Positions 9,619 to 64,000 of a stretch of 64,000 nucleotides of DNA are shown piece by piece. This stretch comes from a virus. Both the position numbers and the translations under genes were made by a program. Location: positions 19,601-83,600 of IMG/VR virus record IMGVR_UViG_3300037427_000542; one strand, 5' to 3'. The notes below the pieces were generated by a model. That model saw only the letters and a list, made by a program, of their open reading frames with translations, made no database searches and was not told the DNA's origin. Each line of letters opens with the position of its first letter. Position 1 is the stretch's first letter.

Positions 9619-11166
9619 ATGAAACACTTAAATGTGAAAGCCCTACTATTAGTAGGACTATTTTTCGTTATGACACCAGTAAAGGCGTCAGATGTAGAAG
9701 AAGTGATAGTGATCGGAGCTAATATAGCTCAAGGTTATTCTCAGCCAGAGTATGATGGCTCTGTAATAGAAGCATTAGATCCCACAAGAGTCTTTCAGCC
9801 AGGAGGCGTAGGCGGATTTGTAGGAGCAACAACACATGGAACAGATGTAAAACATACAGCTGTATATAGGAACGGAATTCCTGTTAACGACCCTGGCTCA
9901 GGGTGGTATGACTTTGGAACAGAAGTGCCTACATTCCAAACATTTAAAACAATCTCAGGACCTAATAGTACTTTGTATGGTAGTTCTTCAATGGCAGGAA
10001 CAATACTTATGGAAGATACTTTTGATGGCAATAACTTTTTTACTAAAGGAGGAGACGGATTATTCTTTGTACAAGGTGGAACAGACTGGTTTCACATATC
10101 TAGATACAAAGGTTCCAACGGCTCTGTAAAAACAGATAACAACGAAGAAGATTGGTTTGAGAATGTAACACTTAAAACAAAAACAGAACTTGGTAATTGG
10201 AAAATAATTAATGTCCTACAGGATTACAAATATGATTATGATTCCTGTTACGACAGCAGTTGGTCTAAGATAGATACATGTACACAAGAAGGCACTAAGA
10301 CAGATATTTCAGTAAGAAATGATTGGCTTACTGCTGGTTATAGTATGAATGATGTAACACATAACACAGGCTGGTCTGCTAAAAGTGAACGCTATTTTGT
10401 AGATGCTAATAAAGAAGTATTACCTGGTTTAATTCTAGGAGCACAGAACAATCAAGAAAAATATAATGATAAGTGGGATAATAGAACAGGTGTCTATGCC
10501 AACTACAATTTAAATGAATTTGGTTTTGGATATAGATTTGAGGAAAACGAACACATTTATAGAGTAGGTTATACTACACAAGGATTTAATCTATCCCTGG
10601 CAAATAGTTTTAGAAAGCCAAACTTATATGAAAGATATGGTGACGACTGGACATTTGCTAATCCTAATCTAAAACCTGAGAAAGGAAAAGGTGTTGAAGC
10701 ATCTTATGGAGATGTTACAGCATGGTACTACGAATTTTCTGAAGGTATTGATTATAGTTACATGACATCTAGCTATGTGAATGTTGGTTCATACGATAGC
10801 AAGGGCATTAAATATAGTAATCATATTCTAACAGACAAAGGAGCCTTCCATGTGTTCGTACAATACACAGATTCAGACAGAATTAGAGTACCCAAATATA
10901 AAACAAAACTATCCTGGTATGGTGGTTCTGTATATGGATTTGACTACATGTTATCTTATGTAGGACAATTTGAAAAAGGATTAGAGTTTGATGGCAGACC
11001 TATTGATGATGTGTCTACATTCAACTTTAATATGGGATATTATCTAACACCCAGATACCGCGTAGGACTCCAAATTACTGACATTTTAGACAGAAATTTT
11101 GAGATTTTACCCGATTATTCAGCAGGTGGAAGGACAATTTCCTTGTCCTTAGACCTAAGTCTTTGA
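9619..11166 (+). CDS. TonB-dependent outer-membrane receptor (BtuB-like)
   Basis: 515 aa. The signal peptide (1-23, ending VKA) is followed by an EEVIVIGAN TonB-box-like start (27-35). The plug domain has VYRNGIPVNDPGSGWYDFG, then FKTISGPNSTLYGSSSMAGTILM, the classic IDGVxV plus GPxSxLYGxxAxGGxI motif. The rest is a beta barrel with FRKPNLYERYG and NPNLKPEKGKGVEASYG (FRAPN/NPxLKPE motifs) and ends in ISLSLDLSL. It is shorter than typical receptors (about 600-700 aa), suggesting trimmed loops. It would import a TonB substrate (cobalamin, siderophore or similar) or alter phage adsorption. The BtuB-like plan and the CobT/CobS-like genes next door suggest cobalamin, but substrate is inference. 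Confidence 0.85.
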   Translation: MKHLNVKALLLVGLFFVMTPVKASDVEEVIVIGANIAQGYSQPEYDGSVIEALDPTRVFQPGGVGGFVGATTHGTDVKHTAVYRNGIPVNDPGSGWYDFGTEVPTFQTFKTISGPNSTLYGSSSMAGTILMEDTFDGNNFFTKGGDGLFFVQGGTDWFHISRYKGSNGSVKTDNNEEDWFENVTLKTKTELGNWKIINVLQDYKYDYDSCYDSSWSKIDTCTQEGTKTDISVRNDWLTAGYSMNDVTHNTGWSAKSERYFVDANKEVLPGLILGAQNNQEKYNDKWDNRTGVYANYNLNEFGFGYRFEENEHIYRVGYTTQGFNLSLANSFRKPNLYERYGDDWTFANPNLKPEKGKGVEASYGDVTAWYYEFSEGIDYSYMTSSYVNVGSYDSKGIKYSNHILTDKGAFHVFVQYTDSDRIRVPKYKTKLSWYGGSVYGFDYMLSYVGQFEKGLEFDGRPIDDVSTFNFNMGYYLTPRYRVGLQITDILDRNFEILPDYSAGGRTISLSLDLSL

Positions 11167-34595: not shown

Positions 34596-34671
34596 GCTCG
34601 GATAGCTCAGTTGGTAGAGCAGATGATTTGTAATCATCAGGTCGTAGGTTCAAATCCTATTCCGAGCTCCA
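34596..34671 (+). tRNA. tRNA-Thr (UGU)
   Basis: The 7-bp acceptor stem GCTCGGA/TCCGAGC, D arm AGCTCAGTTGGTAGAGC, 5-bp anticodon stem GATGA/TCATC with loop TTTGTAA (anticodon TGT at 34629-34631), T arm with GGTTCAAATCC. Discriminator T34668 and an encoded CCA (34669-34671). It reads ACA, a codon used very often in this AT-rich genome. Confidence 0.95.
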
Positions 34672-56601: not shown

Positions 56602-57723
56602 ATGGCAAAATCTAAGAAACGCAGTCAATACCTTTTGGCTGAACCGAACTGGGCTGAACTCAGCCTAATTGAAAATGAAGAAGAAAGAGCTAAAGCCTTT
56701 CAGCAAACACAATACTGGATACACCAGGAAATAGCAAACAAAGAGACTTACAAAGAGTTTCGAACCTGGGTTAAGAAACATTCTGGTTGGGATAAGAAAG
56801 CACAGACATCTGTACTTGGTTGTCCTGATTGGAGATACTTAACAATAGGACAGTACGCTTACTTTCAGAACAAGACAGGCTGGATGCCAGCTCAATCTAG
56901 AATTTGGATTGATGCTAAACAACCTGAGCTTATTGAACAAGGCGATAAAGAGATTTCTGAGAAAGCTCTTAAGAAGAAGGTTGTTGCAATTAAACCTAAG
57001 ATAATTAGAACACAATTACCTGACTTCCTGGCAGCATTTGATGAGATGCTAGACAATCTAGTCGAAGGTAAGAAGGCAGGTACTGTTGAAGGCTTACTTA
57101 GGCAAATAACTATGCTGCCTGCTGAGACAGCAGAAGCTAGATCTGAGATATCTAAAATTAAAGACGAGTATGATGAACTTGTAAGAGTTCGTAAGATTAG
57201 AGGTGGTAGAAGTGATTGGGACGAACAACTGATTGAAGGTTATAGTCATATCAATACACCACAGTTAAGAAAGATTATGGCATACTTTGATGAAGGCTTA
57301 CAGTCTCTTGATACATTTACAGCATCTAAACGAACTGTAAGACGTAAGAAGCCTGTTGATCCTCGTAAGATAGTAGCACGATTGAGGCATTTAAAAGCAG
57401 ATAAGGACTTTAATATAGCATCTATTAACCCTGTAGATATCCTAGGTAGTACCGAGGTGTGGGTATATGATGTTAAACGCAAGAGATTAGGGCTATACAT
57501 GTCTGAGAACCCTGGAGGACTAGGTGTACACGGCACAAGTATAACAGGTTATGATGATAAACTGTCTTATGAGAAGACTCTACGGAAGCCTGATGAGCAG
57601 TTACCACTTATAACTAAAAAGTCTAAGAAGGCACTACATGAACAAGTAGGTAAGATACGAGGTAAACAAATGAAAGTTAAGACTCGTATTAATCCTAATA
57701 TGCTACTATTGAAGGTGCAGTAA
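56602..57723 (+). CDS. Conserved T4-like phage protein, unknown function
   Basis: 373 aa, basic, helical. DWRYLTIGQYAYFQNKTGWM and a Lys/Arg-rich middle, then a C-terminal barrel-like segment EVWVYDVKRKRLGLY. Not recognised. It has its own promoter with the gp45-type element, so it is probably an early/middle protein. Abuts the nuclease-like gene (stop/start overlap). Confidence 0.7.
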   Translation: MAKSKKRSQYLLAEPNWAELSLIENEEERAKAFQQTQYWIHQEIANKETYKEFRTWVKKHSGWDKKAQTSVLGCPDWRYLTIGQYAYFQNKTGWMPAQSRIWIDAKQPELIEQGDKEISEKALKKKVVAIKPKIIRTQLPDFLAAFDEMLDNLVEGKKAGTVEGLLRQITMLPAETAEARSEISKIKDEYDELVRVRKIRGGRSDWDEQLIEGYSHINTPQLRKIMAYFDEGLQSLDTFTASKRTVRRKKPVDPRKIVARLRHLKADKDFNIASINPVDILGSTEVWVYDVKRKRLGLYMSENPGGLGVHGTSITGYDDKLSYEKTLRKPDEQLPLITKKSKKALHEQVGKIRGKQMKVKTRINPNMLLLKVQ

Positions 57724-58250
57724 TGGATGATTCAATTCCAATAGAAAATTTATTGTGTCTAACAAGAAATGGTTTACCTGATGATGAAGAACTTAGAAAA
57801 GCAATATCAGGCAGAGAAAATAATAAACTTAAAGGTACTTATGTGGAACTGGAACTTAGAGAAGGATTACTAGGAGCAGGACATACATTACTAGGCACTC
57901 ATGTTAAAAGAACTGATGGACTATCTAAAGTAGATACAGTATGGCAAAAGAAAGGTTGCAATAGGAAAGAACCTGTCTTTATAGAATCCAAATCAGGCGA
58001 TGGATTATCTACTTTTATAAAAGCTGGAGGTAGTAGTGTTCATTGGGATTATAAGTTACATGAGTTTCATTTTATGTCTATATTTTTCAATAGCATGGAT
58101 GATAAACCTATTGTCTGTATTGTTCCTTGGCAATGGTTACATGGGTTACTAAGTAATAAAAAAGCTGAAGGTTTAGGTAGCTCTGTATCATATAAAGATG
58201 TAAAACAATGGGAAAATAATTGGGATCTTTATAGTGGAGAATTAATATGA
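57723..58250 (+). CDS. Putative PD-(D/E)XK nuclease-like protein
   Basis: 175 aa. KGTYVELELREGLLGAGHTLLGTHVK, then KVDTVWQ and PVFIESKSGDG have the spacing of a restriction-endonuclease fold (Asp, then ExK with Glu and Lys, in IESK). The catalytic assignment is inference. It precedes RNase H with a 4-nt overlap. Confidence 0.5.
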   Translation: MDDSIPIENLLCLTRNGLPDDEELRKAISGRENNKLKGTYVELELREGLLGAGHTLLGTHVKRTDGLSKVDTVWQKKGCNRKEPVFIESKSGDGLSTFIKAGGSSVHWDYKLHEFHFMSIFFNSMDDKPIVCIVPWQWLHGLLSNKKAEGLGSSVSYKDVKQWENNWDLYSGELI

Positions 58251-59152: not shown

Positions 59153-59743
59153 ATGAAGAAAATTTTAATACTAGCTACATTAATAGTGGCACCATTTTAT
59201 GCAACAGCAGTAGATGTTGGGGGTAGCGTAACAGTAGGGTCTGATTACTTATGGAGAGGAGCAAGCCAAAAGGGCAGTCCAGCAATCTCAGCAGGAGTTG
59301 AAGTAGGACATAATGGTTTATATGCAGGTACATGGGTATCACAAGTAGACTATGGTGACAATTCAGATTATGAGTACGACTTTTATGCTGGATATGGATA
59401 CGATATAACAGACGAATTGTCAGTAGATGTAGGTTTAATCCAATATAACTTTAATAATGAGTCTGGAAACCAATTAGAAGAATGGTATACCAGTGCAACC
59501 TTTAGGAGATTTACAGCAATATATTATCAAGACTTAGACAATAGTGATAATCATTTTGCAGAATACAGCTATGAGATACCTGTTGATAATGTAAGCCTAT
59601 CGGTATTCTATCAAGATCCTATGGATTTTTATGGTATAAATATAAGTAAGGATATAAACAGTTACACATTAGCAGCTACAGTAGGACAAGGACGAGATGA
59701 ATTGGGCTCAGAAGCTGTTGTAAGTGTAGCATATAATTTTTAA
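59153..59743 (+). CDS. Outer-membrane barrel protein (TIGR02001/Gcw_chp-like)
   Basis: 196 aa. Signal peptide MKKILILATLIVAPFYATA, then SVTVGSDYLWRGASQKGSPA (the family's SDYxxRGxSQ signature), DYEYDFYAGYGYDI and alternating aromatic strands, ending SVAYNF with terminal Phe as in outer-membrane barrels. Bacterial members are porin-like. Second outer-membrane protein in the window. Confidence 0.8.
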   Translation: MKKILILATLIVAPFYATAVDVGGSVTVGSDYLWRGASQKGSPAISAGVEVGHNGLYAGTWVSQVDYGDNSDYEYDFYAGYGYDITDELSVDVGLIQYNFNNESGNQLEEWYTSATFRRFTAIYYQDLDNSDNHFAEYSYEIPVDNVSLSVFYQDPMDFYGINISKDINSYTLAATVGQGRDELGSEAVVSVAYNF

Positions 59744-59757
59744 ATATGGAGAACACA

Positions 59758-60255
59758 ATGGAACCAACAAAGTTTAGACAAGTTAACGAAGCTTTTGATT
59801 GGGTATTTGAAGCGCCTAAAAAGGATCAGGTTGATAGGCTTAAAACAATAGCATCTAAGAATCAGACTATTGTTCCTTTTACAAGATGGGGCGTGGGTGC
59901 TGAAGACATAGACTGGAAACTACCAGAAGGAATACCTGATGCAACTAAAATTAAAGATGATATACCAGATGATATGGGCGAGTCTACTCTTACACTAGAG
60001 TTTAGACGAATTAAATCCTTTACAGATCCTACATCTAATATGGCAAACTTAGCACCTTGGAAGCGTGAGATGAATTGGATGTCTATTATTGAAGGTGTAC
60101 ATCACAAAGAGGCAGAGTTCTTAACAGCAGTTAAGGATAAACAACTTCTAAATCTCTATCCTAAACTTGAAGCTATCCTAGGCGACTTAGGTATTACAGA
60201 ATATGTAAAGCCTAAGAAGACAAGGAAGAAGGCTGTCAAGAAGAGTGCCAAGTAA
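59758..60255 (+). CDS. Conserved T4-like phage protein
   Basis: 165 aa from ATG 59758 (GGAG 6 nt upstream; ATG 59746 is an alternative). VNEAFDWVFEAPKKDQVDRL, FTRWGVGAEDIDWKLPEG, a FRRIKSF element and a C-terminal basic tail KPKKTRKKAVKKSAK. Not assigned. The end overlaps radical SAM 3 by 11 nt. Confidence 0.65.
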   Translation: MEPTKFRQVNEAFDWVFEAPKKDQVDRLKTIASKNQTIVPFTRWGVGAEDIDWKLPEGIPDATKIKDDIPDDMGESTLTLEFRRIKSFTDPTSNMANLAPWKREMNWMSIIEGVHHKEAEFLTAVKDKQLLNLYPKLEAILGDLGITEYVKPKKTRKKAVKKSAK

Positions 60256-61348
60256 ATATTGGAAATACGAAAATATAAAGAGCGTACATTTAGAGGTATC
60301 AACTCTTTGTAACTCTATTTGTCCGTGGTGTCCTAGATATGAGAACTTCTCACCTAATCTAAATCCTAATATCGTTGAAGGCTCTTACACACTTCAACGA
60401 TTTACATCTGACTTCCCGATTAATTTTATAAAACAAATAAGGCATTGGACATTTGCTGGGGACTATGGAGATCCTTGTACTGCGCCAGAGCTGTTAGATA
60501 TATTATACTACATTAATGAACACAACTCTAAATGTAGCATTCAGATTAATACCAATGGTGGTATGAAAACAGAAAGATTTTGGTATGACTTGGGTATGCT
60601 GTTTACTAAAAACAAGAGTAGGTATGTTATATTTTCTGTTGATGGCTTGGAAGATACTAATCACATATACAGACGAAATGTTAAATGGCATAAGGTTGTA
60701 AGAGCCATGAGAACTTATAGCAACACAGGAGCCACAGGTATATGGGAGTATCTAAAATTTAAACACAATGAACACCAGCTATCTACAGCAGAGGATATGG
60801 CAAAAGACTTAGGCTTTGAGATTAGATTCAAGAACCCTAATGGTTTTGAGGGAGCGCCAATGCCTGCTAGGGATAAGGATTACAATATAGAATATGAGAT
60901 ATATCCTCAAACAGGTAATGAGATAAAGGCTATTGATGAGAGAACTAAGAACTGGATAAAGACTCTTGATGTAACAGATACATATAAAGTATATAACAAA
61001 AGACAAACTAAGGTTAATTGTAGTGCTAATCATAAGTTTGGTGGAGGCTATGAGGTTAGAATAAACTATGACGGCACAGTTTGGCCTTGTAGTTTCTTTG
61101 GACACTTATCCAGCAAGGACTTAACTAATAGATATGTAGGCAAACCACAACAGGCACAGATGTATGACTTATTTAAGGATACAGACAACAATTTAAACAA
61201 CAGAAGTCTAAAGGAAATATTAGATGCTGATCCTTTTAAGAATGTTTACGAGGGTTGGGAAGGTAATAATATAATGTTATGTTCAGACTCTTGTGGTGAA
61301 TTTAAAACAATGGAGAAGATATATGGAAGTTCTGCTGACAGGCGGTAA
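60245..61348 (+). CDS. Radical SAM protein 3 (SPASM-like)
   Basis: 367 aa from GTG 60245. Cluster motif at Cys22, Cys26, Cys29 (CNSICPWC), GGDxxxxP-equivalent AGDYGDPC, INTNGG and a C-terminal Cys set (TKVNCS; VWPCSFFGH; MLCSDSCGEF), resembling SPASM auxiliary clusters. Substrate unknown. Overlaps the SDR-like gene by 26 nt. Confidence 0.8.
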   Translation: MPSKYWKYENIKSVHLEVSTLCNSICPWCPRYENFSPNLNPNIVEGSYTLQRFTSDFPINFIKQIRHWTFAGDYGDPCTAPELLDILYYINEHNSKCSIQINTNGGMKTERFWYDLGMLFTKNKSRYVIFSVDGLEDTNHIYRRNVKWHKVVRAMRTYSNTGATGIWEYLKFKHNEHQLSTAEDMAKDLGFEIRFKNPNGFEGAPMPARDKDYNIEYEIYPQTGNEIKAIDERTKNWIKTLDVTDTYKVYNKRQTKVNCSANHKFGGGYEVRINYDGTVWPCSFFGHLSSKDLTNRYVGKPQQAQMYDLFKDTDNNLNNRSLKEILDADPFKNVYEGWEGNNIMLCSDSCGEFKTMEKIYGSSADRR

Positions 61349-61811
61349 TAGTAAGTTTGGTGCTGAACTAGCAAAGCAAATGCACTTCCAAATGAATTGG
61401 AATGTAGAACTTGTTCCTCGACAACATTTAGATGAGGCAATACAAGTATCAAAGAAACATTATGATCTTATATTCTTTAATCATAATAAGCCTGTAGTTG
61501 ATTGGAACTTTGATAAGTATCCTTCAGAGTTATTAAAACAAGTAACTGCTGATAAAGTGGGTTGGATGATTACTTATGCTGCACTTACACCAACAGAACA
61601 AGGCGATTATAATATAGGTTTCTGGCAGTATGTGGCACAGAAAGGAGTATATATTAATCAGATGAAGTTTTACTCTAAACGATTCACAACCTTTGTATTT
61701 GATCCTGGTATTATTACAGAGGACAATAGATCTAGTATTGCAAGTGAGTTTATTGAAGTGTGCCCAACGATTAAAGATGTCTACAGAAGTTCTGTAGGAT
61801 CAGGCCTATAA
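61323..61811 (+). CDS. Short-chain dehydrogenase-like Rossmann protein
   Basis: 162 aa from ATG 61323. MEVLLTGGNSKFGAELAKQM is a TGxxxxxG-type NAD(P) motif, with a NH-D pair and Tyr regions later. It is too short for a full SDR (about 250), so it is a reduced or divergent form. Convergent with the - strand gene, overlapping it by 31 nt. Confidence 0.5.
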   Translation: MEVLLTGGNSKFGAELAKQMHFQMNWNVELVPRQHLDEAIQVSKKHYDLIFFNHNKPVVDWNFDKYPSELLKQVTADKVGWMITYAALTPTEQGDYNIGFWQYVAQKGVYINQMKFYSKRFTTFVFDPGIITEDNRSSIASEFIEVCPTIKDVYRSSVGSGL

Positions 61812-62311
61812 GGATCGTAGAACCTACCCCATTGATATCCTTCTGGTAGTGGTTCGCTAACAGCTATTGTAGTAGTTACACCCTCAGGCGATACACACCA
61901 TCGTCTCTTCTCTTTAAAGTTAGAAGCATAAGACATTTTTATACGAGTGTCTTTACTATGTTGTTTACCATACATTGGATTGTTCTCACCGCCTCGAGTA
62001 TTAGTCATAGTCTTAGATACTTTCTCTCTAAACTCTGGGCTCCTACCATTCTTTACTGCTGGATGATTCTTACCTAACTTGGCTTGTCTTATTCTTTCCA
62101 GGCCTTCAGGTGTGTGGTGTTTGGTTCGTTCTCGCGCTGTATCGTTTACAACAGGCAATCCTAGATGTAGTGCATGCTCTCTTATTTGTTCAATAGTAGA
62201 GAACCTTCTTATCAGTTCACGAGGCTTTGGAACATCCTGTACATGATTGTTGTCTACGATATATAGACTGCCTTTGTGATTAAATAGAAAGAATAACGAA
62301 GCTTTAGACAT
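61781..62311 (-). CDS. NUMOD3-type DNA-binding protein (homing-endonuclease relative)
   Basis: 176 aa on the - strand. GKNHPAVKNGRS followed by ENNPMYGKQHSKDTRIKMS matches NUMOD3 motifs found in GIY-YIG and HNH homing endonucleases. No catalytic GIY-YIG or HNH core is visible in the 50-residue N-terminal part (SLYIVDNNHV), so the nuclease may be degraded, or this is a NUMOD3-only protein. It follows the 513-aa gene immediately (start overlaps by 1 nt). Confidence 0.6.
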   Translation of the reverse strand: MSKASLFFLFNHKGSLYIVDNNHVQDVPKPRELIRRFSTIEQIREHALHLGLPVVNDTARERTKHHTPEGLERIRQAKLGKNHPAVKNGRSPEFREKVSKTMTNTRGGENNPMYGKQHSKDTRIKMSYASNFKEKRRWCVSPEGVTTTIAVSEPLPEGYQWGRFYDPYRPDPTELL

Positions 62312-63852
62312 TAAGCACCTTCAATATAGTCTATGTCTACGCCTGTTAATTTAGCAGTATCTTTAGAATTTTCAACAACAGATCTATAATAGATATATTC
62401 TCTTGGTGTGCCTTTATTTTTAGTTTCTATCTTAACACGAAGTTCTAATATGGCAATGCCTTTTGTGTCTGTTATATCTGAATGAGCTCTAATTATATGT
62501 CTAGGTAATCTACCACCTTTACTATCTGTTTCTACATTTTCAATACTGAAATACTCATACCTTTTAATGTTATCATGTATTAGATTAAAGTCTTTGAGTG
62601 TTGGTATACCAGAGTCTAATAAGTTTAATTGAGGAACCTCTCCATCTTCTTTTTGTGCGTGATATTTTGTGGCATCTGCAAATCTTGTAACTGATGCTTT
62701 ATCCCATTTTGTTATTTTATTATAACCACCTCTTTTCATTGCTCCTGTTTTATATGCTAGACTTAAGGCCTTGTCAGCTTCTTGTGGTATTGCATTCATA
62801 TGTTTTTTATATGTTGGTCCTATACTGTTTATATCTGCACCATAAAATTCAGACATTAGCTTTTTTAATGTAGGGAACTCTGTACCACCACGCTGTCCAA
62901 ATTGTTTTATTCCTGCTACCTTAACTGATATTTCCATAGAAGTTTCTTTATTGTTACCATTCTCATCTGTAAACGATACATCTATATCTTTCTTTGTACC
63001 TTTTTGATCCTCGAGTCCCTGAGCTTTTACTGTAATAATATCTCTTCTGCCATTTTCATAAAAGAGTCTATCCCACCCAACAACATTTTCAGAATTAGCA
63101 TATTTTACAGCGGCATCATATATACCATCCATTTTACCTGAACGAACTCTAGGCGTTACCAGTGCTTTCATATCTGCTGTTGCTAATCCTAGTATCCAAA
63201 TAATTGCATCGGGATCAAGAACATCTGTCTTACTTCCTTCTTTAGGAGGCATGTTAGGAGAACTAAACTTATCGCCTATGGTTACAACATTTGCTGGATT
63301 TGTTCCTAAAGCCTCAATAACTTTTTCTACATCATGTCTTTGTACAATCATTCCTGGTTTTTCTTTCCTAAACCTAGCCACAATAGCTGCACTCATTATT
63401 CCTTCAGCAACATTACCTCTATTGTAAGGTGTCTTTCCATCTTTAAAGTTCTCATCTTTATATAATCTCTTTAACTTTAAAATGTTTTCAGACTCTCCGC
63501 CTTCTGAAGCACTCTTACCTAATTTTTTTGCTTGTGTTGAACCATATTCTTCTGCATTTTCTATTGCCTTTTTCCAAGCAGTTTTAGCTGTAGAGTCTAA
63601 AGTAACTTCCATGAATATATTATTACCTGCATTTTGCATTCTATTAATTATAGTAGCATCGGTATTAAGGTTTATCTTATTCATTTTACCTGCTATTAAT
63701 TCATATAGATTCTTTATAACTGCTTTGCCTGTGGGATTCTTGCTTGTAGGAGTAAAGTCTACAGTAAATGGCGTACCATTCTTTAGCATAGTCCAAAAGA
63801 CAACTTGTCTTGTATCATATTTTATTATCTCATTAGCATCTAACTTTGCCAT
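62311..63852 (-). CDS. Putative restriction-nuclease-like protein
   Basis: 513 aa on the - strand, AGGAG site. RGNVAEGIMSAAIVARF (about 144-160), then ITVKAQG, KDIDVSFTDENG and ETSMEISVKVAGIKQFGQRGGTEF (acidic residues, then S-V-K, then Gln) suggest a PD-(D/E)XK-type nuclease core. I recall a T4-like phage family with the RGNxAEGI pattern. Catalysis and target are inference. It is led by its own promoter and is one of only two genes on this strand. Confidence 0.55.
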   Translation of the reverse strand: MAKLDANEIIKYDTRQVVFWTMLKNGTPFTVDFTPTSKNPTGKAVIKNLYELIAGKMNKINLNTDATIINRMQNAGNNIFMEVTLDSTAKTAWKKAIENAEEYGSTQAKKLGKSASEGGESENILKLKRLYKDENFKDGKTPYNRGNVAEGIMSAAIVARFRKEKPGMIVQRHDVEKVIEALGTNPANVVTIGDKFSSPNMPPKEGSKTDVLDPDAIIWILGLATADMKALVTPRVRSGKMDGIYDAAVKYANSENVVGWDRLFYENGRRDIITVKAQGLEDQKGTKKDIDVSFTDENGNNKETSMEISVKVAGIKQFGQRGGTEFPTLKKLMSEFYGADINSIGPTYKKHMNAIPQEADKALSLAYKTGAMKRGGYNKITKWDKASVTRFADATKYHAQKEDGEVPQLNLLDSGIPTLKDFNLIHDNIKRYEYFSIENVETDSKGGRLPRHIIRAHSDITDTKGIAILELRVKIETKNKGTPREYIYYRSVVENSKDTAKLTGVDIDYIEGA

Positions 63853-63873
63853 CTGTATCTCCTTTATTTAACA

Positions 63874-63902
63874 AGTATGCACTTTAGGGCACCAAATGTC
63901 AA
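63874..63902 (-). promoter_or_regulatory. Sigma70-like promoter for the - strand island
   Basis: Reading the - strand: TTGACA (63897-63902), 17-bp spacer, CATACT (63874-63879). The spacer ends AAAGTG before CATA, like the GTGCATAAT of the + strand promoters. Confidence 0.7.
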
Positions 63903-63920
63903 CCTATTGTTTCTTTTATT

Positions 63921-63928
63921 TATAAATA
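63921..63928 (+). promoter_or_regulatory. T4-type late promoter TATAAATA (63959 gene)
   Basis: Exact TATAAATA, 30 nt before the next + strand ATG, which has its own AAGGAG. Confidence 0.65.
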
Positions 63929-63958
63929 AGAATAGGACTTATATAAAAAGGAGATATC

Positions 63959-64000
63959 ATGAGTAAGTTTAATAAACTACTAGATGCTAAATTTGAACCG
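63959..64000 (+). CDS. Start of a late gene, cut by the window end
   Basis: ATG 63959 with AAGGAG upstream opens a frame (MSKFNKLLDAKFEP) that runs off the window. Downstream of a late promoter. Too short to identify. Confidence 0.55.
   Translation, partial: MSKFNKLLDAKFEP

What the first reader, a model, noticed from the sequence alone, without database searches (positions are those of the whole stretch)
61781..63902. Only - strand island: NUMOD3 protein without nuclease core plus nuclease-like partner
In a 64-kb run of + strand genes, two - strand genes with their own promoter lie convergent to a Rossmann gene. The NUMOD3 protein lacks a visible nuclease core and the 513-aa protein looks like a PD-(D/E)XK fold. 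It may be a mobile or defence/anti-competitor module with the DNA-binding and cutting parts separated.
Basis: partly seen in the sequence, partly recalled or inferred. Interest (0 to 1): 0.52.

Follow-up and report, generated by a model that had tools for sequence, protein, structure and literature searches.

The report
Swappable nuclease gene beside constant DNA-binder
In a group of uncultured marine T4-like phages, one fixed late-expressed slot holds a nuclease-like gene that is exchanged whole between relatives, next to a constant DNA-binding protein derived from homing enzymes; this suggests a dedicated, regulated slot for changeable DNA-cutting weapons.

Summary
The two genes are real. 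NUM (61781-62311) is a NUMOD3 protein without a nuclease domain. p513 (62311-63852) belongs to phrog_3560, has an invariant N-x-G-x3-E ... D-x19-S-x-K pattern, and its predicted fold matches restriction enzymes HinP1I and MspI best (Z about 6, suggestive only).

The island is not a mobile unit. It is a conserved, syntenic operon in marine T4-like phages: p513 precedes NUM in 29 of 33 assessable contigs. p513 is swapped ORF for ORF (28% identity where flanking genes are 89-96% identical). Four contigs hold another protein there; two of these three kinds also look like nucleases.

A T4-type late promoter (TATAAATA) precedes p513 in 20 of 21 loci, so the operon is probably late. NUM evolves with core genes, not with p513 (Spearman 0.80 vs 0.05), which argues against a split homing endonuclease.

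Best reading: a late slot for interchangeable DNA-cutting enzymes, with NUM as constant DNA-binding regulator, as I-TevI represses its own late promoter. Nuclease activity is inferred from motif and fold; NUM's regulatory role and the target are hypotheses. An own-genome site purge linked to p513 alleles was sought and not found.

The parts
62311..63852 (-). p513: predicted PD-(D/E)XK-type DNA endonuclease, family phrog_3560; the swappable first gene of the operon
   Evidence: ORF; phrog_3560 E 1.8e-24; 21 invariant columns in 44 sequences, incl. N144, G146, E150, D289, S309, K311; model; best PDB matches HinP1I and MspI
61781..62311 (-). NUM: NUMOD3 DNA-binding protein without nuclease domain, the constant second gene; its start overlaps the p513 stop by one base
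   Evidence: PF07460 E 4e-10; I-TevI DNA-binding domain 1i3j, E 0.0038; 86% and 64% mean column identity
63917..63924 (-). T4-type late promoter TATAAATA before p513-NUM, the only one on the - strand of the window
   Evidence: 20 of 21 loci have TATAAATA on the p513 strand within 160 nt; 102 of 6300 random windows
63921..63928 (+). late promoter TATAAATA of the divergent gene, sharing the 12-bp palindrome 63917-63928 with the p513 promoter
63930..63935 (-). CTATTC element 5 nt upstream of the late promoter in p513 direction; candidate operator (inferred)
   Evidence: 8 of 238 TATAAATA sites in fetched phage DNA have it, all 8 at p513; caveat: here also the start of the divergent transcript
63874..63902 (-). 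sigma-70-like TTGACA-17-CATACT, conserved mainly in the window's own clade
63959..64000 (+). start of the divergent neighbour (DUF1353; phrog_1158 tail assembly chaperone), truncated by the record end
   Evidence: complete copy in L004:3576-4076
61293..61811 (+). convergent Rossmann-like ORF (GTG start listed; ATG at 61323 also possible); variable neighbour, not part of the operon

Best explanation
The pair is a late-expressed operon with an exchangeable first gene and a fixed second gene. SHOWN by sequence: p513 is a conserved family with an invariant nuclease-like motif; it is replaced from start to stop codon between close relatives; in four relatives a different protein sits in the same slot, and two of those three protein kinds carry nuclease-like motifs; a T4-type late promoter precedes the slot; NUM stays constant and follows the core genome. 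INFERRED: p513 cuts DNA (restriction-enzyme-like fold, E150/D289/S-x-K311 active site). INFERRED, weaker: it is used late in infection against foreign DNA (co-infecting phage, satellite or host), and this conflict drives the swapping. INFERRED, weakest: NUM is not the targeting half of p513 but a DNA-binding regulator of the locus that represses or tunes the late promoter, as the NUMOD3-type enzyme I-TevI does to its own late promoter; this would explain why NUM and the promoter stay whichever nuclease is present.
For: Nuclease: N144-x-G146-x3-E150, D289, S309-x-K311 invariant in 44 of 44 aligned members; model core confident, E150 in a helix, D289 at a strand start, S-x-K in the next strand; top two PDB matches are the REases HinP1I (Z 6.1, 204 residues, rmsd 4.6) and MspI (Z 6.0, 193 residues, rmsd 4.4), next best Z 4.5; MspI is also Foldseek rank 1 (E 0.038). 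The strict pattern N.G...E..D.{18,19}S.K is in 40 of 56 non-redundant p513 members and 3 of 4 members of slot family phrog_8438, against 2 of 266 other long ORFs, one of which (L166) is itself a slot protein. Swapping: window-type L004 vs L007 flanking proteins 89-96% identical, p513 28%; DNA identity stops 5-15 bases inside p513 and resumes at its stop codon against L006, L007, L010 and L011. L016-L017: p513 dS 0.155 vs NUM dS 0.738, a recent exchange. Slot: p513 in 29 of 33 assessable NUM contigs, other proteins in 4. The same two families replace each other in the cyanophage slot after mazG. Late: TATAAATA in 20 of 21 loci and before the partners in L167 and L186. NUM: Spearman 0.80 with core gene d59746, 0.05 with p513. 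I-TevI autorepression: passages of PMC2988022.
Against: No activity is measured. Z 6 is in the range the tool warns may be only a common arrangement, and no PDB hit reaches Foldseek E 0.001. The usual D/E of the second motif is Ser. p513, phrog_8438 and the L186 protein are not linked by profile comparison, and the L170 occupant is an unclassified fragment. No short motif is purged in an allele-specific way in the window's clade. NUM binding near the promoter is untested; CTATTC is absent from 9 of 21 loci, and in the window it also belongs to the divergent transcript. In a second group of phages NUM follows a SpeD-like gene with no nuclease seen, so its role cannot be only nuclease control.
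Confidence: 0.42

Rival explanations
1. p513 is a free-standing homing or marker-exclusion endonuclease: it cuts the rival allele in a co-infecting phage and the break is repaired with its own copy, so the gene spreads by gene conversion. NUM is a leftover of an earlier homing enzyme.
For: ORF-for-ORF replacement between conserved flanks; NUM relatives are GIY-YIG+NUMOD3 enzymes; middle and late promoters are known for T4 intron homing enzymes (PMC2988022, passages); no purged short site, as expected for a long target.
Against: The slot before NUM is never empty (33 of 33 assessable contigs), unlike patchy homing genes; NUM identity does not follow p513 type, so there is no sign of co-conversion of the flank.
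Confidence: 0.2
2. p513 is a virion-delivered nuclease: made late, loaded into the head and injected, like T4 internal proteins, to act on the next host's DNA.
For: Late promoter. Six p513-family loci of other phages (L109, L129, L143, L150, L156, L159) begin with a capsid-targeting-like peptide ending in LxEAS, and in L159 three neighbouring genes have such starts too (motif drawn from recall of T4). In phage Syn19 the gene two places downstream of the p513 relative is T4-GC190, a family detected in S-SM1 virions (PMC3037559 section 26), and it starts MKKFSAFLNEAE. T4 internal proteins are poorly conserved and carry targeting peptides; EcoRI and a staphylococcal nuclease have been packaged by fusion (PMC9026906, passages).
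Against: The window's p513 and the other NUM-linked members listed start MAxL or similar without such a peptide. No virion proteomics was found for this group.
Confidence: 0.13
3. One reading: NUM finds the DNA site and p513 cuts it; a split homing or anti-competitor nuclease.
For: One operon, overlapping start and stop; one protein has the DNA-binding motif, the other the nuclease motif.
Against: No co-evolution of the two (Spearman 0.05, Mantel p 0.32, 20 loci); the 98%-identical NUMs of L010 and L012 sit with p513 proteins 32% identical; p513 relatives in cyanophages have no NUM in the regions read; NUM lives without p513 in the SpeD-linked group.
Confidence: 0.1
4. p513 is a stand-alone short-site restriction enzyme whose site has been purged from the phage's own genome.
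For: Fold match to two 4-bp cutters (their sites are recalled); ACGT 8 observed vs 137 expected in this record, GTAC 0 vs 211 in G010.
Against: The purged site does not follow p513 phylogeny (4 changes vs 3.9 in shuffles); phages with different p513 types share the ACGT purge, and p513 phages G012, G014, G016, G017, G031 have no strongly purged 4-6-mer.
Confidence: 0.06
5. p513 and NUM are ordinary DNA-processing or virion-assembly proteins with no conflict role.
For: Late promoter, conserved synteny, divergent neighbour matches phrog_1158 (tail assembly chaperone).
Against: Housekeeping genes do not normally show 28% identity between flanks at 89-96%, nor replacement by other families.
Confidence: 0.09

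Closest known systems
Type II restriction endonucleases HinP1I and MspI (PD-(D/E)XK fold)
   Same: Best two PDB matches of the p513 model (Z 6.1 and 6.0); conserved E ... D ... SxK pattern. The similar D-X17/18-N/Q-X-K spacing of those enzymes is recalled, not tested.
   Different: p513 is about twice as long, no detectable sequence similarity, Ser in place of D/E/N/Q, no DNA methyltransferase motif found in ORFs of this record, carried by a phage as an exchanged cassette.
T4 I-TevI and GIY-YIG/NUMOD3 homing endonucleases
   Same: NUM shares the NUMOD3 region and following segment with GIY-YIG+NUMOD3 enzymes and matches the I-TevI DNA-binding domain; I-TevI is expressed from a late promoter and represses it (PMC2988022 passages).
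   Different: NUM has no GIY-YIG domain, is fixed beside core genes instead of patchy, and is coupled to an unrelated nuclease-like gene.
T4 internal protein (IP) genes
   Same: Poorly conserved proteins acting in the phage-host arms race (PMC9026906 passages); late expression of IPs is recalled.
   Different: T4 IPs are small and carry capsid-targeting peptides; the window's p513 is large and has none.
ICP1 Odn (origin-directed nuclease) and phage HEG exchange boundaries
   Same: A nuclease replaces another anti-parasite system in one phage locus; nuclease genes at exchange boundaries (PMC8263062 abstract; PMC10448857 passages).
   Different: Odn is one chimeric T5orf172 protein; here nuclease-like and DNA-binding proteins are separate and do not co-evolve.
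phrog_3560 / phrog_8438 proteins of cyanomyoviruses
   Same: p513 belongs to phrog_3560; phrog_8438 replaces it in both the NUM slot (L166, L167) and the cyanophage mazG slot.
   Different: In cyanophages the gene is not followed by NUM; both families are listed as unknown function.

Membership tests
Type II restriction endonuclease (MspI/HinP1I-like) | PD-(D/E)XK fold of this branch | tested here: inconclusive
   ranks 1 and 2 by Z, but Z about 6 and Foldseek E 0.038
Type II restriction endonuclease (MspI/HinP1I-like) | conserved catalytic residues | tested here: met
   E150, D289, S309, K311 invariant in 44 of 44; Ser is a variant of the second acidic position
Type II restriction endonuclease (MspI/HinP1I-like) | sequence similarity to the family (PDB chains; PF11463) | tested here: not met
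   no PDB chain at E <= 10; no R-HINP1I match in the record
Type II restriction endonuclease (MspI/HinP1I-like) | partner methyltransferase or own-site purge | tested here: not met
   no [DNS]PP[YFW] motif in ORFs of 100 aa or more of the record (other methyltransferase kinds not excluded); purge not linked to p513 type
Type II restriction endonuclease (MspI/HinP1I-like) | site-specific DNA cleavage | not testable with these tools
   needs purified protein
NUMOD3 homing endonuclease (NUM) | NUMOD3 DNA-binding motif | tested here: met
   E 4e-10
NUMOD3 homing endonuclease (NUM) | GIY-YIG or HNH nuclease domain | tested here: not met
   none in the window NUM nor in the L186 and L190 NUMs, while GIY-YIG is found in the L023, L024 and L053 proteins
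NUMOD3 homing endonuclease (NUM) | patchy presence or mobility among relatives | tested here: not met
   syntenic and evolving with core genes
Free-standing homing endonuclease (p513) | present/absent at its site, with empty alleles | tested here: not met
   slot filled in 33 of 33 assessable NUM contigs; the second NUM group has mostly a SpeD-like gene instead
Free-standing homing endonuclease (p513) | biased inheritance in mixed infection | not testable with these tools
   needs cultured phages
T4-type internal head protein | late promoter | tested here: met
   20 of 21 loci
T4-type internal head protein | N-terminal capsid-targeting peptide | tested here: not met
   absent in the window p513; CTS-like only in six loci of other phages (regex from recall)
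Mobile genetic island | different insertion sites or absence in close relatives | tested here: not met

The most novel reading that the evidence does not exclude
Marine T4-like phages keep a dedicated, regulated weapon slot: a late promoter with an upstream operator, a constant nuclease-less NUMOD3 protein that controls it, and a first gene into which unrelated PD-(D/E)XK nucleases are swapped ORF for ORF; in other branches of the same nuclease family the enzyme is loaded into the head and injected.
Probability: 0.22. Interest if true: 0.78.

Novelty: new variant of a known kind. Interest (0 to 1): 0.5.

Why it matters
It gives a concrete function guess for two large unknown-function phage families (phrog_3560, phrog_8438) and points to a fixed locus where phages exchange nuclease-like genes whole, so the rules of phage-phage and phage-host DNA conflict in the ocean could be read from one slot. 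It also offers a case of a homing enzyme's DNA-binding half kept beside core phage genes without its nuclease, with a testable role as late-promoter regulator. The constant NUM, the late promoter and the many natural p513 alleles make both claims directly testable in vitro. In the papers searched (listings; passages; one section) I saw no description of this operon.

Tried and rejected
Mobile island: rejected, because synteny and slot occupancy are conserved. Split nuclease: tested by matrix correlation, not supported. Purged-site restriction enzyme: looked promising at first (ACGT 5 vs 100.5 in the window; GTAC 0 vs 211 in G010) but failed the tree test and the allele-specific motif scan; the ACGT, GTAC and CGCG purges remain unexplained. 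Early takeover operon: weakened, as TTGACA is conserved in 9 of 21 loci only and TATAAATA in 20 of 21. Bacterial origin of p513: a genome-contig scan by one short motif gave 9 stretches and no relative; weak evidence of absence. NUM in bacterial genomes: only 7 NUMOD3-region matches of 27-41%. Profile links between p513, phrog_8438 and the L186 protein: none. R-HINP1I family in the record: no match. PADLOC: nothing for p513, a homing-endonuclease match for NUM (E 3.5e-5). NCBIfam: nothing for p513. The NUM N-terminus resembles MbtH-like folds at Z 4.9 or less; not interpreted. Viral structure library: the ACG-2014f and S-RIM8 relatives match strongly, and three further uncharacterised proteins pass E 0.001. 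VIA rows other than REases (ThrRS, PYL and others, Z 4.5 or less) were taken as background. The PD-(D/E)XK-like ORF 57723-58250 was considered as cause of the ACGT purge and dropped, since it was not found in the relatives. Rows dropped before counts: L085 (the window's own record), fragments and near-copies in the p513 set, L085 in the NUM list. The scans kept only the best 80 of 108, 251 and 128 relatives, so the surveys are partial; many loci are near-copies, also among the 21 and 20 loci. Pages 'freshwater' in my notes was a guess from memory for the SpeD-linked NUM contigs and is not used here.
Full report
OBSERVATION. The window is bases 19601-83600 of an 83.6-kb uncultured virus record. 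Its DNA polymerase is 49% identical to that of cyanophage S-MbCM6 and its RNase H is T4-like, so it is a T4-like phage with no close isolate found; the host is unknown. Both minus-strand genes are real and are the only clear ones in the window. They overlap by one base and share an operon.

NUM. The 176-aa protein has NUMOD3, matches the DNA-binding domain of I-TevI (E 0.0038) and shares its C-terminal half with GIY-YIG+NUMOD3 homing enzymes (35-41% identity for loci L023-L051; Pfam for three of them), but has no nuclease domain. Twelve close copies have 86% mean column identity, 33 copies incl. the more distant SpeD-linked group 64%; dN/dS is 0.065-0.143 in 6 pairs. So it is a conserved gene that has lost, or never had, the catalytic half.

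p513. It belongs to phrog_3560, unknown function. tblastn finds 49 cyanophage records, all below 60% identity; a motif scan finds 251 viral contigs with relatives, 80 kept. In 44 aligned members 21 columns are invariant, including N144, G146, E150, D289, S309, K311 and the QFGQ block 317-320. The AlphaFold2 model is mostly confident for about 144-510 (mean pLDDT 77.4, pTM 0.73). VIA-align places HinP1I (Z 6.1) and MspI (Z 6.0) first among 994 chains, next 4.5; Foldseek puts MspI first with E 0.038. That two restriction enzymes known to resemble each other (title of a paper cited in PMC4081073) top the list is suggestive; the Z values alone are not proof.

SYNTENY AND SWAPPING. In relatives found through NUM the order RNase H - phrog_461 protein - [variable genes] - NUM - p513 - divergent gene is kept in those listed. 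Where the slot before NUM can be read, p513 is there in 29 of 33 contigs; the other four hold phrog_8438 (L166, L167), a 274-aa protein with FPDFGF...IEYK (L186) and an unclassified fragment (L170). The window's p513 is 27-30% identical to those of L006, L007, L010, L011 and L012 (29-55% among these), while NUM is 91-98% and the divergent neighbour 80-99% identical among the same six. DNA identity between L004 (the window's twin) and L006, L007, L010 and L011 stops 5-15 bases into the p513 ORF and resumes at its stop codon. For L016 and L017, p513 dS is 0.155 but NUM dS 0.738: p513 moved recently. p513 dN/dS is 0.09-0.97 in 5 same-type pairs. In cyanophages the slot after mazG is filled by phrog_3560 in ACG-2014f, Syn19, Syn2 and S-RIM8 and by phrog_8438 in S-RIM44, S-RSM4 and S-CAM1. 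Profiles of the two families do not match, yet both carry N-x-G-x3-E and D-x17-19-S-x-K.

LATE OPERON. TATAAATA occurs 16 times on the + strand of the window and once on the - strand, where 4.5 and 5.4 are expected; the single - strand copy is 72 nt before p513 and forms a palindrome with the late promoter of the divergent gene. TATAAATA lies within 160 nt upstream of p513 on its strand in 20 of 21 loci (102 of 6300 random windows; several loci are near-copies) and before the partners in L167 and L186. In the second NUM group, NUM usually follows a SpeD-like gene and TATAAATA lies 422-427 nt before NUM in 11 of 14 distinct loci. So NUM sits in late operons in both groups. CTATTC 3-8 nt upstream of TATAAATA is found at 8 of 238 TATAAATA sites in fetched phage DNA, and all 8 are followed by the p513 leader; it is in 12 of 21 p513 loci.

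NUM AND p513 DO NOT CO-EVOLVE. Over 20 loci, NUM identity follows core gene d59746 (Spearman 0.80, p 0.001) and RNase H (0.49, p 0.001), not p513 (0.05, p 0.32). Within the window's own six close loci none of the correlations is significant (NUM-d59746 0.21, p 0.13). Whole-record searches find p513 once in 22 of 32 records and in none of the five SpeD-group NUM records searched (G024-G028). This speaks against NUM as the dedicated targeting half of p513.

MECHANISM. I infer a late nuclease whose gene is changed as a cassette, and a constant DNA-binding protein for the locus. The I-TevI precedent (it represses its own late promoter; PMC2988022, passages) makes autoregulation the most economical role for a nuclease-less NUMOD3 protein in such an operon. 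Target and benefit are unknown; conflict with other DNA is the simplest reason for swapping, with ICP1 Odn as a precedent for alternative anti-parasite systems in one locus (PMC8263062 abstract; PMC10448857 passages).

RESULTS AGAINST. A purged-site model was tested: ACGT is 8 vs 137 expected in this record, GTAC 0 vs 211 in G010, CGCG 0 vs 43 in G022, but the purge does not follow the p513 tree. Among G000, G001 and G002 the shared strong purge is ACGT; only G001 has further words under the thresholds (GGATCC 0 vs 13.5, ATGCAT 3 vs 18, and some gapped palindromes), which is no clear allele-specific site. The window p513 has no capsid-targeting-like start, unlike six loci of other phages. No enzymatic evidence exists.

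NOVELTY. The parts are of known kinds; the arrangement (constant nuclease-less NUMOD3 gene plus swappable nuclease-like gene under a late promoter) was not seen in the papers searched. I rate it a new variant of a known kind.

Noticed in passing
window 1-64000 and L230; G010 (L235-L238); G022 (L262-L264); G030 (L275-L278): Near-total loss of single 4-bp palindromes: ACGT 8 vs 137 expected in this record, GTAC 0 vs 211 in G010, CGCG 0 vs 43 in G022, CCGG 0 vs 52 in G030. It does not follow p513 type; cause unknown.
   Followed up: partly
L109, L129, L143, L150, L156, L159; Syn19 L002:8863-10023: p513 relatives of other phages start with capsid-targeting-like peptides (e.g. MRDLLDRLDQLDEAS), and a nearby cyanophage virion protein family (T4-GC190) starts MKKFSAFLNEAE: possible head-packaged nucleases.
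   Followed up: partly
57723-58250: 175-aa + strand ORF with KVDTVW...VFIESKSG, PD-(D/E)XK-like by eye, tightly packed between the 56602 gene and RNase H; no relative found in viral contigs nor in the fetched loci: a singleton nuclease-like insertion.
   Followed up: partly
60245-61811: Radical SAM gene (best NCBIfam matches TIGR04317 and N_Twi_rSAM, below cut-off) plus Rossmann-like ORF; present next to NUM in many but not all relatives (absent in L007, L008, L014-L016).
   Followed up: no
L016:3883-4797, L017:4049-5008, L179:3027-3815, L086:9298-9825, L098:4956-5303, L020:598-1197: Different small genes (DUF6473-like, Fe-S biosynthesis, methyltransferase-like, unknowns) are inserted between p513 and NUM in some phages.
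   Followed up: partly
59153-59743 and 9619-11166: Phage genes for apparent membrane proteins: Gcw_chp family (E 5e-15) and a TonB Plug-like domain (E 4.1e-5).
   Followed up: no
L001:6716-8952 (ACG-2014f): The p513 relative is directly followed by a D12-class adenine methyltransferase (PF02086, E 1e-24), resembling a restriction-modification pair.
   Followed up: no
34596-34671: One tRNA-Thr(tgt) gene.
   Followed up: no
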